A stretch of DNA of 54,411 nt from positions 1 to 54,411 of the forward strand of contig JAATFQ010000098.1 of the NCBI GenBank assembly GCA_015655115.1, given 5' to 3'. A program made the translations under genes and the position numbers. This DNA comes from Sphingobacteriales bacterium. Its GTDB lineage: Bacteria; Bacteroidota; Bacteroidia; Sphingobacteriales; Sphingobacteriaceae. Below are positions 19,306 to 23,880 of the stretch, in pieces. A model generated the notes under the pieces. That model saw only the letters and a program-made list of their open reading frames with translations. It was not told the DNA's origin and made no database searches. Numbering within the stretch: the stretch's first letter is position 1; each line of letters starts with the position of its first letter.

Positions 19306-19692
19306 TCATACTATAGCATACGCATATGAAGGATAAGGAGTGTAGATATAATCTGTAGCTTCAAAATATTCAGAAGCCAGAACCATCAGAATAGCATCAT
19401 CACTAAAGCTGTGCATCGTATGCCAGTCCTCCGGCTGGATAAGCAAACATTTGTCCGGCGAATCCAATACCACAGAACTTTCTTCTATGCCATTATTATT
19501 GTAAATACAACAATATCCACGGATACAAATTGCAGCCTGCATAGTTTGATGATGGCGGTGCCCACCCCTTTCAGAATTATCGACACCATAGATATAAAAT
19601 ATACGCTTGATATCAAATGGAACGACTTTCTCAATTACAGTAAGGTTACCACGGCTATCAGTAAAAGTTTTCAGGTTAATTAAGGAAGCCAT
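19306..19692 (-). CDS. FdtA/QdtA-family dTDP-4-keto-6-deoxyhexose 3,4-ketoisomerase (cupin)
   Basis: The 128-residue cupin converts dTDP-4-keto-6-deoxyglucose to the 3-keto sugar used by the neighbouring aminotransferase. Visible family features are the N-terminal DSRGNLTVIE, the IKRIFYIYGV strand, the catalytic-type RGGHRHHQTMQAAICIRG with its His cluster, and LLIQPEDWHTMHSFSDDAIL followed by LASEYFEATDYI. The length is normal. Its start overlaps the glycosyltransferase stop by 17 bases, and its end overlaps the likely native start of the aminotransferase. Sequence alone cannot tell whether the product is the galacto or gluco epimer. Confidence 0.88.
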   Translation of the reverse strand: MASLINLKTFTDSRGNLTVIEKVVPFDIKRIFYIYGVDNSERGGHRHHQTMQAAICIRGYCCIYNNNGIEESSVVLDSPDKCLLIQPEDWHTMHSFSDDAILMVLASEYFEATDYIYTPYPSYAYAIV

Positions 19693-20683
19693 AGCTCAAT
19701 GCGGTTTTAGTGTAAATATTTTTATAATACCATCTTAAAGAGAATAACAGGGAACGGCCAACTACTTGTTTCACCCATTTAATATCATCTGTGATCTCGT
19801 GTGGAAGAATATCTTTCTGGTAGGCGCTGATTTCCTTCTCCGCTTTTGACAGTGAGTGGCTATAAGGCCGGTATATATGTTTTACCGGGTTTCTTATAAT
19901 CTTATAGACATTATTTGATAAGCTGTAAGTATTGTTTGTGGTATAGTGAAATTCATGATAATGATAAAAAACAAGATCAAACTCCTGTCCGGTCAGAATT
20001 TCTTTTCCTTTTACAGCATTCGATTCAGATTTGAACACATACTGTTGAACATTCCATGGCGCAATGCCTCCACCCAAATGTTTCAGTACATGAACTGTAC
20101 TAAAACGGCTTTGCCAATCGTCAAGATATTTCTGATCGCCAAACTTACCATCTTCGAAACGGTTATAACACCAGGTCATACAGGCATCTATCCACCAATT
20201 TAATACTTCCATCCCTTCTTCAGTATGTTTGAACGTCATGAACTGCACGCAGTATATCCCGCTGGTAACCGACTGATTATAACAAGGAGTATACCTATGT
20301 TCGGTGATTAATACTGATTTACTTCCCATTTCAGCGATCAATACGGCAGGGTCACTAAAAAACAATAAGTCGGCATCGACATAGGTACAGTGATCCAGTT
20401 GATACGTTTCCAAACAATATTTGATAGTAGATGAAGCACAAGTCCAACAATATTCGCCCGCTGTCCTGTCCTTTTTTACATCCAATAATTTCTCATTTTC
20501 AAACTCATACAAACTGATGACCGTTGCATGTTCAAGCTGAAGATTAGACAATACCTCATAACAATGGGTGTCAAAAGCAAAAATGTAGAGATGAAAACTG
20601 GCACAATGACTTTCCAAAGAATGATACATTGCCAATCCGCGTGACAAATAGGTAGAATTAAATAAAGTAGAGAATTTAAGCAT
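19676..20683 (-). CDS. Glycosyltransferase-like protein (GT-A, GT8-like)
   Basis: The 335-residue protein begins MLKFSTLFNSTYLSRGLAMY and contains CTYVDADLLFFSDP, a DxD-type motif for nucleotide-sugar and metal binding. GIYCVQFMTFKHTEEGMEVL, FGDQKYLDDW and HLGGGIAPWN follow, as in nucleotide-diphospho-sugar transferases of the GT8-like group. It has no membrane segment. It is first in the minus-strand run with the ketoisomerase and aminotransferase, so it may transfer the 3-amino sugar or work on the glycan that carries it. No polymerase, flippase or RmlA/RmlB gene is present here. Confidence 0.75.
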   Translation of the reverse strand: MLKFSTLFNSTYLSRGLAMYHSLESHCASFHLYIFAFDTHCYEVLSNLQLEHATVISLYEFENEKLLDVKKDRTAGEYCWTCASSTIKYCLETYQLDHCTYVDADLLFFSDPAVLIAEMGSKSVLITEHRYTPCYNQSVTSGIYCVQFMTFKHTEEGMEVLNWWIDACMTWCYNRFEDGKFGDQKYLDDWQSRFSTVHVLKHLGGGIAPWNVQQYVFKSESNAVKGKEILTGQEFDLVFYHYHEFHYTTNNTYSLSNNVYKIIRNPVKHIYRPYSHSLSKAEKEISAYQKDILPHEITDDIKWVKQVVGRSLLFSLRWYYKNIYTKTALSYGFLN

Positions 20684-21024: not shown

Positions 21025-21030
21025 GTAAAC

Positions 21031-21038
21031 CAAATATA
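21031..21038 (-). promoter_or_regulatory. Promoter -7 box on the minus strand, left arm of the palindrome
   Basis: TATATTTG on the minus strand matches the Bacteroidota -7 consensus TAnnTTTG and mirrors the plus-strand box in the other arm. It could drive the glycosyltransferase run with a leader of about 340 bases. No -33 box was recognised. Confidence 0.35.
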
Positions 21039-21075
21039 TAAAATAAACACTACTAAATTAGTAGTGTTTATTTTA

Positions 21076-21083
21076 TATATTTG
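21076..21083 (+). promoter_or_regulatory. Promoter -7 box of the encapsulin operon
   Basis: TATATTTG matches the Bacteroidota -7 consensus TAnnTTTG. Transcription would begin near 21090, leaving a leader of only about 18 bases before the ATG at 21108. The box is inside the right arm of the perfect inverted repeat, so a protein bound to the palindrome would block or position RNA polymerase. Confidence 0.5.
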
Positions 21084-21107
21084 GTTTACAATAAAATTAA
21101 CAACAAT

Positions 21108-22034
21108 ATGGCAGGACAAGTAAAAAGTACACAACAAACAGCATTAAGTGATATTGCGGCCAGGCCACTGGCAATAGCGACACGGACAGTACCACAAGCC
21201 CCCTTTATTACACCGAGATGGTTACCTCATTTGTTAAGCTGGACGCCGGTGGAATCCGGTATTTACCGGGTAAACAAAGTTAAGGATGGAGAATCAGTAG
21301 ATGTAGATTGCTCTAACAGAGACGAACGTGTGCTGCCAAATACCTTTGTGGATTATGTTGAACAGCCACGCGAATACCTGTTAAGTGCAGTTAACACGGT
21401 CCTTGATGTTCATACCAGGGTTTCAGATCTTTACAGTAAACCTTACAATCAGATCAGCGAGCAACTTCGCTTAACGATTGAAGCCATTAAAGAGCGCCAG
21501 GAAAGTGAGCTGATAAACAATAAAGAGTATGGTTTACTGCATAGTGTTGTACCCTCTCAGCGCATCAATACGCGAACAGGAGCTCCAACGCCAGACGATT
21601 TAGATGAACTGATTACCAAGGTATGGAAAGAGCCAGGATTTTTTCTGCTGCACCCTCTTGCTGTAGCTGCCTTTGGCCGTGAATGCACGAGACGGGGCGT
21701 ACCTCCTCCCACAGTATCTTTATTTGGCTCACAATTCATTACCTGGAGAGGTATACCACTAATCCCCTCCGATAAAGTGCCTATTGAGAACAACAAAACT
21801 AAAATATTACTGATCCGTACAGGCGAAAGCAGACAAGGCGTAGTTGGATTGTACCAACCAGACCTGCCCGGAGAGCAGTCGCCTGGTTTATCAGTCCGCT
21901 TTATGGGGATAAATGAAAGAGCAATAGCTTCTTATCTCGTTTCCTTATATTGTTCATTGGCTGTGTTGGTAGATGATGCAATTGCCGTACTTGATGAAGT
22001 TGAAATCAATAAATACCACGAGTATAAATATTAG
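21108..22034 (+). CDS. Family 2A encapsulin shell protein (SrpI-like)
   Basis: The 308-residue protein matches the Family 2A encapsulin nanocompartment group, which has the HK97 phage capsid fold. Recognisable stretches are ARPLAIATRTVPQAPFITPR, WLPHLLSWTPVESGIYRVN, LPNTFVDYVEQPREYLLSAV, the hydrophobic FFLLHPLAVAAFGRECTRRG, SLFGSQFITWRGIPLIPSDK and LLIRTGESRQGVVGLYQPDL. Many copies should assemble into a closed shell. I chose the ATG at 21108; a TTG at 21081 would add residues encoded by the palindrome and is unlikely. The cysteine desulfurase gene follows after 5 bases, the known cargo pairing for Family 2A. Shells of this type have been linked to elemental sulfur storage. There is no signal peptide, so the compartment is cytoplasmic. 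Confidence 0.93.
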   Translation: MAGQVKSTQQTALSDIAARPLAIATRTVPQAPFITPRWLPHLLSWTPVESGIYRVNKVKDGESVDVDCSNRDERVLPNTFVDYVEQPREYLLSAVNTVLDVHTRVSDLYSKPYNQISEQLRLTIEAIKERQESELINNKEYGLLHSVVPSQRINTRTGAPTPDDLDELITKVWKEPGFFLLHPLAVAAFGRECTRRGVPPPTVSLFGSQFITWRGIPLIPSDKVPIENNKTKILLIRTGESRQGVVGLYQPDLPGEQSPGLSVRFMGINERAIASYLVSLYCSLAVLVDDAIAVLDEVEINKYHEYKY

Positions 22035-22039
22035 AGGTT

Positions 22040-23791
22040 ATGAGTGATACAATTAACGGCCCAAATGGGCTACCTGATGTACATACTTTACAAAAACTGG
22101 CGAACGAACTTTTCTCCGCTTTACCGGGAGGATATGTAACAGGGCCATTGCCTGCAAAAGAAATTTTACCCTATAGCAATGATGTAGCACAAAAAAATGG
22201 AAGCGGGCTTCCTCATTCTGCCATACACCAGGGCAATGCGGTAGACCTGACCAATCCGCAAACAAGCTTACCAGATGCAAATGGGCTGGGATTAGGTCAT
22301 ATTCCAGGATCTACAGCCGGAAGCGGAGGCGTATCCGGACAGAAGCCAATTGTTCAAAGTTATGAGCAGCTGCCTTATCAGCCGGCATGGGGATCAACTC
22401 TTTCCCTTCCGCTAGAATCTGAGAGGCCTTTTGAACAGGAGCTGAAGCAAGCATTAGCCAGTATAAATATATATACACCATCGGCCCAACTGCCATCTTT
22501 TCAATCTGGTCCGCTGACTGAAAGTGCTTATTATTTTTCGTCGTTCAATCAGTTTAGCCACGGAGGCCTTCTGCCAGCTTTTAATGTAAACCTGGTGAGG
22601 AATGATTTTCCTATTCTCTCTGAACACGTAAATGGAAAGCCTTTAATCTGGCTCGACAATGCAGCTACAACACAAAAACCCCGGCAGGTAATTGAGCGGT
22701 TAAGTTATTTTTATGAACATGAAAACTCCAACATCCACCGTGCAGCACATGAACTGGCCGCACGGGCAACAGATGCTTATGAAGGTGCCAGGCAAAAGAT
22801 CAGTAAGTTTATCAATAGCCGCTCAACAAATGAAATTGTTTTTGTACGTGGGACTACTGAAGCTATAAACTTAGTGGCTGGCAGCTGGGGAGAAGAATAC
22901 CTGCAGCAGGGCGATGAAATTATCATCACTCACCTTGAGCATCATGCCAATATTGTTCCCTGGCAATTATTAGCTAAAAAGAAAGGGTTAACAATTAGGG
23001 TGGTACCCGTAGATAATGATGGACAGCTGTTGCTGGATGAATACGGGAAACTACTAAATGCCAAAACTAAACTGGTCTCCTTCACAATGGTGTCCAATGC
23101 GCTTGGCACGGTTACTCCTGCAAAGCAAATTGTAGACATGGCCCATGCTGTAGGCGCCAGGGTACTCGCAGATGGTGCGCAATCTGTTTCTCATATCCGA
23201 ACGGATGTACAGGAACTAAATGCGGACTGGTTTGTTTTTTCGGGACATAAGATTTTTGGACCTACCGGCATAGGTGTATTATACGGAAAAGAGGACCTCT
23301 TAAATTCTAGCCAACCCTATCAAGGTGGTGGCAATATGATCAAGGATGTAACTTTTGAACATACTGAATTTCACAATGCACCTGCCCGGTTTGAGGCAGG
23401 GACGGGCAATATTGCGGATGCAGTTGGCTTAGGTGCTGCCATTGACTATGTACAAAAGCTGGGAATTGATCACATTAACGAGTATGAGCATTTCCTGCTT
23501 AAATACGCTACACAAAAACTTGAACGGATTTCCGGACTACGATTAATTGGTACCGCTGCTGAAAAAACCAGCGTACTATCTTTTGTACTTCATGGGTATA
23601 CTCCTGCCGAAGTGGGGACAGCACTGAGCCAGGAAGGTATTGCAGTAAGATCCGGACATCATTGTGCACAGCCAATTTTAAGACGTTTTGGACTGGAAGC
23701 CACAGTCAGACCTTCTCTGGCTTTTTATAACACTTGTGCAGAGATTGACCAGTTGTCTGATGTTATTTCTGGGTTAAGACAACGAAATTAA
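22040..23791 (+). CDS. Encapsulated cysteine desulfurase (SufS-like) with N-terminal cargo-loading extension
   Basis: The 583-residue protein has two parts. Residues 1-185 are low-complexity, rich in Gly, Pro, Ser, Gln and Leu and probably disordered. Two denser patches lie near the start (LPDVHTLQKLANELFSALPG) and the end (ESAYYFSSFNQF), as expected for the shell-targeting extension of Family 2A cargo. Residues 186-583 are a group II cysteine desulfurase: WLDNAATTQKP, HLEHHANIVPWQ, LADGAQSVSHI, the PLP lysine in FSGHKIFGPTGIG (K404) and the persulfide cysteine in RSGHHCAQP (C542). It converts cysteine to alanine and sulfane sulfur inside the encapsulin shell. The RSGHHCAQP form is SufS-like. 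No suf genes are adjacent, consistent with sulfur storage rather than Fe-S assembly. A terminator follows. Confidence 0.94.
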   Translation: MSDTINGPNGLPDVHTLQKLANELFSALPGGYVTGPLPAKEILPYSNDVAQKNGSGLPHSAIHQGNAVDLTNPQTSLPDANGLGLGHIPGSTAGSGGVSGQKPIVQSYEQLPYQPAWGSTLSLPLESERPFEQELKQALASINIYTPSAQLPSFQSGPLTESAYYFSSFNQFSHGGLLPAFNVNLVRNDFPILSEHVNGKPLIWLDNAATTQKPRQVIERLSYFYEHENSNIHRAAHELAARATDAYEGARQKISKFINSRSTNEIVFVRGTTEAINLVAGSWGEEYLQQGDEIIITHLEHHANIVPWQLLAKKKGLTIRVVPVDNDGQLLLDEYGKLLNAKTKLVSFTMVSNALGTVTPAKQIVDMAHAVGARVLADGAQSVSHIRTDVQELNADWFVFSGHKIFGPTGIGVLYGKEDLLNSSQPYQGGGNMIKDVTFEHTEFHNAPARFEAGTGNIADAVGLGAAIDYVQKLGIDHINEYEHFLLKYATQKLERISGLRLIGTAAEKTSVLSFVLHGYTPAEVGTALSQEGIAVRSGHHCAQPILRRFGLEATVRPSLAFYNTCAEIDQLSDVISGLRQRN

Positions 23792-23834
23792 CCGATTGCC
23801 TATAGAGAGCTTATGCACTAAATTTAATTCGTAA

Positions 23835-23880
23835 AAGGAGGGTGCATCAATAAATCATGATCACCCTCCTTGTTGTTTTT
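23835..23880 (+). terminator. Intrinsic terminator of the encapsulin operon
   Basis: Perfect 10-bp stem (AAGGAGGGTG at 23835-23844 pairing with 23862-23871) with a 17-base loop, followed by TGTTGTTTTT. It begins 44 bases after the cysteine desulfurase stop, so the operon is just two genes. The remaining gap to the HTCS gene (23881-24193) holds only a promoter-like box at 24081. Confidence 0.8.

What the first reader, a model, noticed from the sequence alone, without database searches (positions are those of the whole stretch)
21025..23880. Complete two-gene Family 2A encapsulin operon with cysteine desulfurase cargo
Seen: an SrpI-like shell protein, a 5-base gap, a cysteine desulfurase with a 185-residue extension, then a terminator; no other gene is in the unit. 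Known: Family 2A encapsulins load cysteine desulfurase and are tied to elemental sulfur storage. Inferred: this soil-type Bacteroidota makes a minimal sulfur-storing compartment, without the serine acetyltransferase or rhodanese genes that sit beside some relatives. Its position between a glycan locus and a divergent sugar-modification cluster suggests it arrived as an independent cassette.
Basis: partly seen in the sequence, partly recalled or inferred. Interest (0 to 1): 0.85.

Follow-up and report, generated by a model that had tools for sequence, protein, structure and literature searches.

The report
Sulfur-regulated two-gene encapsulin cassette
This Pedobacter-type bacterium carries a two-gene unit of a known kind, a Family 2A encapsulin shell gene with its cysteine desulfurase cargo gene, behind a perfect 65-base DNA palindrome whose core partly resembles a site before its sulfate-assimilation genes, so the predicted nanocompartment is likely made during sulfur shortage and has likely moved between related bacteria as a self-regulated unit.

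Summary
Shell (21108-22034) and cargo (22040-23791, 185-residue extension) pass NCBI's curated Family 2A models; 111 such Bacteroidetes operons were counted in 2021 (PMC8346489). As an encapsulin it is a new member of a known kind.

Two things were missed. (1) A perfect 65-nt palindrome (21025-21089) overlaps the promoter. A 17-bp motif learned outside the genus precedes 8 of 12 encapsulin operons of the genus (9 with one placed afterwards), against 0 of 116 upstream and 6 of 115 intergenic controls, three of the six being encapsulin operon heads. It also fits sulfite reductase promoters of the genus (22 of 32 at 8 bits, against 8 of 115), though weakly family-wide. Control by sulfur status is likely; the regulator is a guess. 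(2) The unit was probably exchanged between lineages: its closest relative matches only from palindrome to cargo stop and is more alike at silent sites than two core genes (57% against 41%, p=4e-6).

Sulfur storage remains untested. Cysteine-codon leader peptides before sulfite reductase were noticed in passing.

The parts
21025..21089 (.). Perfect 65-nt palindrome (32-nt arms, 1-nt centre) overlapping the promoter; predicted operator
   Evidence: 100% complementary arms; DNA fold z -11.5; arm length 32; longest arm upstream of 352 other genes is 19
21049..21065 (.). 17-bp predicted operator core ACTACTAAATTAGTAGT
   Evidence: PWM learned from shell upstreams of other genera scores 12.5 bits here; similar sites before the sulfite reductase operon and other genes of the same genome
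21076..21083 (+). Bacteroidota-type -7 box TATATTTG of the encapsulin promoter (predicted; the consensus TAnnTTTG is recalled)
   Evidence: sequence; conserved in the closest relative
21031..21038 (-). Mirror-image -7 box on the other strand, facing the divergent sugar-gene cluster (predicted)
   Evidence: sequence
21108..22034 (+). Family 2A encapsulin shell protein (SrpI-like), 308 aa
22040..23791 (+). SufS-type cysteine desulfurase cargo, 583 aa; PLP lysine K404 and catalytic cysteine C542 assigned by motif (motifs recalled)
22040..22594 (+). Codons of the 185-residue N-terminal extension with loading motifs LQKLANELF (residues 17-25) and SAYYF (162-166)
   Evidence: compared with the motifs printed in PMC8049743 (passage)
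23835..23871 (+). Terminator-like hairpin after the cargo gene, followed by a T-rich stretch
21035..23792 (+). Block homologous to the closest relative (P. cryoconitis M2T3, L168), 84% DNA identity: promoter, shell and cargo; proposed transfer unit

Best explanation
This is a Family 2A encapsulin gene pair, predicted to build an SrpI-type protein shell around a cysteine desulfurase, and it likely travels with its own promoter and a palindrome that would act as an operator tying it to the cell's sulfur-shortage response. Shown: the two genes, their family membership, the palindrome, a related site before most encapsulin operons of the genus and before many of its sulfate-assimilation operons, and homology to the closest relative that is confined to promoter plus two genes. 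Inferred: when cysteine or sulfate runs low, a sulfur-sensing repressor (candidate: the CymR-like Rrf2 protein encoded beside the sulfate-assimilation operon in some relatives) leaves the operator, shell and desulfurase are made together, the disordered extension of the desulfurase draws it into the shell, and sulfur taken from cysteine is held or handed on inside the compartment. The cassette would plug into a host circuit that already exists, because sulfite reductase promoters of some genus members without the encapsulin carry the same kind of site.
For: Family; both loading motifs of Nichols 2021 present in relaxed form (PMC8049743 passages). Operator: a palindromic motif from 26 deduplicated shell upstreams, log-likelihood 86.5 against at most 31.2 in 5 shuffled sets. 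A PWM built without the genus finds 8 of 12 genus encapsulin operons at >=10 bits against 0 of 116 full-length upstream controls and 6 of 115 intergenic controls (p=9e-7; three of those six are heads of encapsulin operons). The same PWM finds 22 of 32 genus sulfite reductase upstreams at >=8 bits and 10 of 32 at >=10, against 8 and 6 of 115. The 15-bp core has 9 distinct places with at most 1 mismatch in the own genome, the reversed pattern none; 7 of the 9 are intergenic: before the encapsulin, a peroxiredoxin, a thioredoxin-like gene, two TonB receptor genes, a PcRGLX-like gene and one gene not annotated. Further sites precede the sulfite reductase gene, a TonB receptor with gamma-glutamyltranspeptidase, and another thioredoxin-like gene. 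The palindrome lies between divergent genes and its core lies upstream of the -7 box, so a terminator would make no sense there. Transfer: silent sites 212/375 against 213/521 for the window and G312 (P. cryoconitis M2T3), p=3.9e-6; bounded homology. SrpI is induced by sulfate starvation in Synechococcus (PMC8049743, passages including its abstract).
Against: The relaxed 17-bp pattern (up to 2 mismatches) is not enriched genome-wide (256 against 268 for the reversed control). Family-wide, the sulfite reductase upstreams fit the shell motif weakly: 7 of 26 against 23 of 280 at >=10 bits, and 2 of 26 against 22 of 280 at >=12. In named loci 13 of 58 Bacteroidota shell upstreams not from Mucilaginibacter or Olivibacter reach 10 bits, 3 of them among 8 Pedobacter (36 of 439 controls, p=0.002), and 0 of 10 betaproteobacteria do. 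In the genus G305 has no site, G312 scores 6.9 and G340 8.0. A PWM made from sulfite reductase sites scores the window's operator at only 1.4 bits: the promoters share the half-site CTACTA more than the whole site. In one search three operons could score at either of two starts, and controls were cut at neighbouring genes and so were shorter than the 250-base test stretches; both favour the test sets. The regulator is a guess: the Rrf2 protein scores 76-81 bits on the CymR model, far below its cut-off of 195, and by eye no site stands in the 130 bases before the Rrf2 genes. No expression data. Transfer rests on two core genes; in other close pairs (such as G308 with G310 or G311) encapsulin genes are also less alike than core genes, so G312's distance from its relatives is only partly special; base composition is not foreign. 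The shell model was poor (mean pLDDT 46.7).
Confidence: 0.6

Rival explanations
1. The compartment is a sulfur store made in times of plenty or constitutively; the palindrome is unrelated to sulfur status.
For: Storage of elemental sulfur by a Family 2A encapsulin is recalled from work on another bacterium (no call; the library search did not list it). The window's site is not close to the sulfite reductase site as a whole, and the family-wide fit is weak.
Against: In the genus, related sites precede most encapsulin operons and many sulfate-assimilation operons, above intergenic controls; SrpI is induced by starvation (PMC8049743).
Confidence: 0.2
2. The palindrome belongs to general AT-rich promoter architecture, or its perfection is an assembly or template-switch artefact; it is not an operator.
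For: The relaxed pattern is not enriched genome-wide; the assembly is fragmented (294 contigs, 80.9% complete); the closest relative has only an imperfect palindrome here.
Against: The right half and core are conserved in the closest relative; perfect palindromes with arms of 12 nt or more occur upstream of 7 of 39 shell genes (some near-duplicates) against 10 of 352 other genes; 0 of 116 upstream controls reach 10 bits. The extra perfection of the left arm may well be a recent mutation.
Confidence: 0.15
3. Vertical inheritance in the genus with many losses and local rearrangements, no transfer as a cassette.
For: 11 of 12 genus shells, the query included, are 94-100% identical to the query, like a genus-level family; composition is not foreign.
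Against: Of 45 pairs only the window and G312 are significantly more alike at silent sites in encapsulin than in core genes; homology stops at the palindrome and the cargo stop; about 8 neighbourhoods among 12 operons.
Confidence: 0.25

Closest known systems
SrpI encapsulin with cysteine desulfurase, Synechococcus elongatus PCC 7942 (6x8m/6x8t; PMC8049743)
   Same: Shell similar over nearly its full length (518.9 bits); SufS-type cargo with an N-terminal extension and the two loading motifs in relaxed form; starvation induction shown there, predicted here
   Different: Two-gene unit of a Bacteroidota behind a palindromic promoter; no evidence yet of particles
Two-gene encapsulin unit of Pedobacter cryoconitis M2T3 (L168)
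   Same: Shell 97% identical, cargo of the same length (583 aa) and the same 5-base gap, similar promoter
   Different: Different flanking genes; imperfect palindrome
Family 2A operons of other genera of the same family (Mucilaginibacter among them)
   Same: Shell and cargo order; a palindromic site in many
   Different: A cysE-like gene follows the cargo in 13 of the 30 neighbourhoods examined, the window included in the 30
Operons with a DUF4395 gene before the shell (G310; by likeness G321)
   Same: Operator CTACTAATTTAGTAG before the first gene
   Different: Three-gene unit with a DUF4395 protein (Pfam for G310 only); the window lacks it

Membership tests
Family 2A encapsulin | SrpI-type shell sequence passing the curated model | tested here: met
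   NCBIfam encap_f2a 528.6 bits, cut-off 380; Pfam SrpI-like
Family 2A encapsulin | No cyclic-nucleotide-binding domain fused to the shell (which marks Family 2B) | tested here: met
   308 aa, only SrpI-like found; it also passes the 2B model (431.5 against 400), its best stretch being positions 210-449 of 450, with a lower score than 2A
Family 2A encapsulin | Adjacent SufS-type cysteine desulfurase with a long N-terminal extension | tested here: met
   f2_encap_cargo1 852.6 bits, cut-off 800; 185-residue extension
Family 2A encapsulin | Two loading motifs in the extension (LARLANEFFS and AASPYYFLDG in PMC8049743) | tested here: met
   Relaxed forms: LQKLANELF at 17-25 and SAYYF at 162-166; both in 50 of 77 cargo sequences examined, the first in 66, the second in 53
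Family 2A encapsulin | HK97 fold of the shell | tested here: inconclusive
   AlphaFold model from 23 close sequences is poor (pLDDT 46.7); inferred from similarity to solved shell 6x8m over residues 8-308
Family 2A encapsulin | Assembly into about 25-nm shells with cargo inside | not testable with these tools
   needs purification and electron microscopy
Sulfur-storing encapsulin | Elemental sulfur inside particles | not testable with these tools
   needs sulfur analysis of particles
CymR (Rrf2) sulfur regulon | Regulator passes the CymR equivalog model | tested here: not met
   76.1 and 81.5 bits, cut-off 195; CymR is the best-scoring named subfamily in that table, so 'CymR-like' only
CymR (Rrf2) sulfur regulon | Shared operator before sulfate-assimilation genes and the encapsulin | tested here: inconclusive
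   Enriched in both sets of the genus with the shell-derived PWM; weak family-wide; the reverse test scores the window's own site at 1.4 bits

The most novel reading that the evidence does not exclude
Family 2A encapsulin genes in Bacteroidota spread as self-regulated plug-in cassettes: a palindromic operator-promoter plus two genes that hook into a pre-existing sulfur-shortage regulon (sulfate assimilation, TonB uptake with gamma-glutamyltranspeptidase, thioredoxin-like proteins) under a CymR-like Rrf2 repressor, a regulon for which the library searches returned no Bacteroidota study.
Probability: 0.38. Interest if true: 0.6.

Novelty: new member of a known kind. Interest (0 to 1): 0.42.

Why it matters
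What Family 2A encapsulins are for is still open: knock-outs of SrpI and its cargo gave no growth defect in Synechococcus (PMC8049743, passage). A recurring site shared in part with sulfate assimilation says when the compartment should be made and gives a simple, testable condition in named Pedobacter strains. A promoter-bounded transfer unit would also help to explain how these organelle genes spread between bacteria without losing their control.

Tried and rejected
Empty-site test: the nearest relative of the right-hand neighbour (G115, 73% identity) shares no other window protein in its fetched 19 kb, nor do G361, G233 and G338 in 15 kb each (only members of the same sensor family were hit), so no empty site could be shown.

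Foreign composition: shell and cargo GC 0.443 and 0.447 against 0.408 +/- 0.026 for window genes; third-position GC 0.375 and 0.354 against 0.386 +/- 0.038; not a clear sign of foreign origin.

Terminator reading of the palindrome: the pattern scan lists it, but it lies in a divergent intergenic region where no transcript of a listed gene would run into it.

Structure prediction with 23 close relatives gave a poor model; no fold search was run on it, and no deeper alignment was made, because sequence similarity to solved shells settles the family.

sigma-70 promoter scan: 9 sites found, 9.3 expected; uninformative for Bacteroidota.

Own-genome sites: 14 were looked at in context; 12 are intergenic, 2 lie inside genes. 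Downstream genes of 8 of them were run against Pfam: three thioredoxin/peroxiredoxin-like, three TonB receptor genes, one PcRGLX-like, one without a family. The other intergenic ones were not annotated.

Papers: PMC8346489, PMC8049743, PMC9723704, PMC7366714, PMC8632094 and PMC1262725 were seen as passages found by term; all others as search listings. 'Encapsulin + Pedobacter' and 'Rrf2 + Bacteroidetes + cysteine + sulfate assimilation' returned no paper; 'CymR + Bacteroidetes + Rrf2 + regulon' returned one on Bacillus.
Full report
Observation. The shell gene starts at ATG 21108 (308 aa) and is followed after 5 bases by the cargo gene (22040-23791, 583 aa) and a terminator-like hairpin. Both proteins pass the curated NCBIfam models of Family 2A shell and its cysteine desulfurase cargo, and the closest solved structures are SrpI and related shells and cysteine desulfurases. 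The cargo has a 185-residue extension with relaxed forms of both loading motifs printed in PMC8049743, and by motif the PLP lysine (K404) and catalytic cysteine (C542). AlphaFold with 23 close relatives gave a poor model, so the HK97 fold is inferred from similarity, not from prediction.

What is known. PMC8346489 (passages) counted 1281 Family 2A operons with cysteine desulfurase, 111 of them in Bacteroidetes, with serine acetyltransferase and rhodanese as the most enriched accessory genes. The operon is therefore a new member of a known kind. In the family searched here 34 of 301 genomes have a match: 28 cover nearly the whole shell without a stop inside, one more has a stop, and 5 are partial or weak. 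In the genus it is 12 of 145. A cysE-like gene follows the cargo in 13 of 30 family neighbourhoods (one member checked, below the cysE cut-off), but not here.

The palindrome. The finding begins at the first base of a perfect 65-nt palindrome. It ends 18 bases before the shell ATG, contains a Bacteroidota-type -7 box (21076-21083; consensus recalled) and, by symmetry, a mirror-image box facing the divergent sugar-gene cluster. Long perfect palindromes recur at this place: arms of 12 nt or more in 7 of 39 shell upstreams (some near-duplicates) against 10 of 352 other genes. De novo search in 26 deduplicated shell upstreams found a palindromic 17-mer, TCTATaaAaTttATAGA, far above 5 shuffled sets. 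Retrained without the genus, it finds 8 of 12 genus encapsulin operons at >=10 bits and 0 of 116 upstream controls; with strictly intergenic controls 6 of 115, three of which are themselves heads of encapsulin operons (G310, G321, G334), so that control count is too high rather than too low. Two features favour the test sets: three operons could score at either of two starts, and the intergenic controls were cut at neighbouring genes, hence shorter. G310 was missed by my operon-head rule, but its site CTACTAATTTAGTAG stands before its DUF4395 gene. The 12 operons are related, so the p-values overstate independence; they lie in about 8 different neighbourhoods, 5 of which have a site at >=10 bits by my count.

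Link to sulfur. The sulfate-assimilation operon (sulfite reductase first) of the own genome has ACTACTAATTCTATATA before its first gene (14.1 bits). With the shell-derived PWM, 22 of 32 sulfite reductase upstreams in the genus (one a second copy in G334) reach 8 bits and 10 reach 10 bits, against 8 and 6 of 115 controls. Those at >=10 bits include genomes without the encapsulin (G115, G120, G140), so the site does not depend on the cassette. In the own genome the 15-bp core has 9 places with at most one mismatch and the reversed pattern has none; 7 of 9 are intergenic. Genes downstream of good sites include a peroxiredoxin, thioredoxin-like proteins, TonB receptors and a gamma-glutamyltranspeptidase, a plausible but partly chance set; one site lies beside a PcRGLX-like gene with no evident link to sulfur. 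Against this: the relaxed pattern is not enriched genome-wide; in the family-wide set sulfite reductase upstreams fit weakly (7 of 26 against 23 of 280 at >=10 bits, 2 of 26 against 22 of 280 at >=12); in named loci 13 of 58 Bacteroidota shell upstreams not from Mucilaginibacter or Olivibacter reach 10 bits (8 of the 58 are Pedobacter, with 3 of the 13) against 36 of 439 controls, and 0 of 10 betaproteobacteria; and the reverse test with a sulfite reductase PWM gives 8 of 12 operons at >=4 bits against 9 of 106 controls but scores the window's site at only 1.4. The operator is thus likely shared in part (half-site CTACTA), not proven identical.

Regulator. Rrf2 genes were sought in 6 genomes. 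One stands beside the sulfite reductase gene in G288 and G019 and about 3.7 kb from it in G101; in G000, G221 and G190 the similar protein is encoded elsewhere. Among named subfamilies it fits CymR best, but below the cut-off. It is a candidate, nothing more.

Cassette. Homology to P. cryoconitis M2T3 runs from 21035 to 23792 at 84% identity and stops at both ends. At fourfold-degenerate sites the encapsulin genes of this pair agree at 212 of 375 positions and the core genes sir and ftsK at 213 of 521 (p=3.9e-6); of 45 pairs among 10 genomes (G334 and G340 left out) only this one shows a significant excess. The G312 encapsulin is less like those of G308, G310, G311 and G321 than their core genes are (0.34-0.39 against 0.50-0.54, p=4e-5 to 1e-7); but other pairs within that group also show deficits (for example G308 with G310, 0.48 against 0.61, p=9e-5), so part of this is a faster silent change of the encapsulin genes. 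Exchange between the two lineages, or receipt from a common donor, is the simplest reading; only two core genes were used.

Mechanism. Shown: gene content, family, palindrome, recurrence of the site, bounded homology. Inferred: assembly, cargo loading, repressor identity, induction under sulfur shortage, and what happens to the sulfur. Storage of elemental sulfur is recalled from another bacterium and was not listed by the library search. Being made in sulfur shortage would be compatible with a store or buffer of cysteine-derived sulfur, but would argue against a compartment that is filled only in times of plenty.

Noticed in passing
L124, L327, L329, L330, L333-L336, L341 and others: about 120 to 50 bases before the sulfite reductase gene: A short ORF with neighbouring cysteine codons (such as MCCCKTQ, MCCCCKTQ, MIYCCCKTH) is followed in most such cases by a terminator-like hairpin with a T run: of 46 sulfite reductase upstreams 24 have such an ORF, 36 a hairpin somewhere in the 250 bases (some far upstream and probably of the gene before), 23 both. 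It looks like a cysteine-responsive attenuator; in the own genome neither was found. Rfam has no match in 4 loci searched. Such leaders are described for Actinobacteria and, before cysS, in Rhodobacterales (PMC1262725 and PMC8632094, passages); the search listed 4 papers, and passages of two of them showed none for cysteine in Bacteroidetes.
   Followed up: partly
L311 (6972-7427, minus strand) and L312: In two genomes of the P. cryoconitis group a DUF4395 gene (Pfam for L311 only; L312 by likeness) stands between operator and shell; in G308 and G311 (L309, L310) only a remnant-like stretch is left there, by eye.
   Followed up: partly
L309:9638-10846: An FGE-sulfatase domain (formylglycine-generating type) gene follows the cargo in G308, another possible sulfur link.
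   Followed up: no
L105:7880-10213: A porin and PBP-like binding protein gene pair near the sulfite reductase operon of G219 has a CTACTAAATCAGTAG site before it: possible anion uptake genes of the same regulon.
   Followed up: no
L101 (G053) and L050: Shell gene with an in-frame TAA and cargo split into several frames: a decaying encapsulin operon.
   Followed up: no
window 21031-21038: The palindrome also creates a mirror-image -7 box pointing at the divergent sugar genes (19676-20683 and beyond), which might be co-regulated.
   Followed up: no
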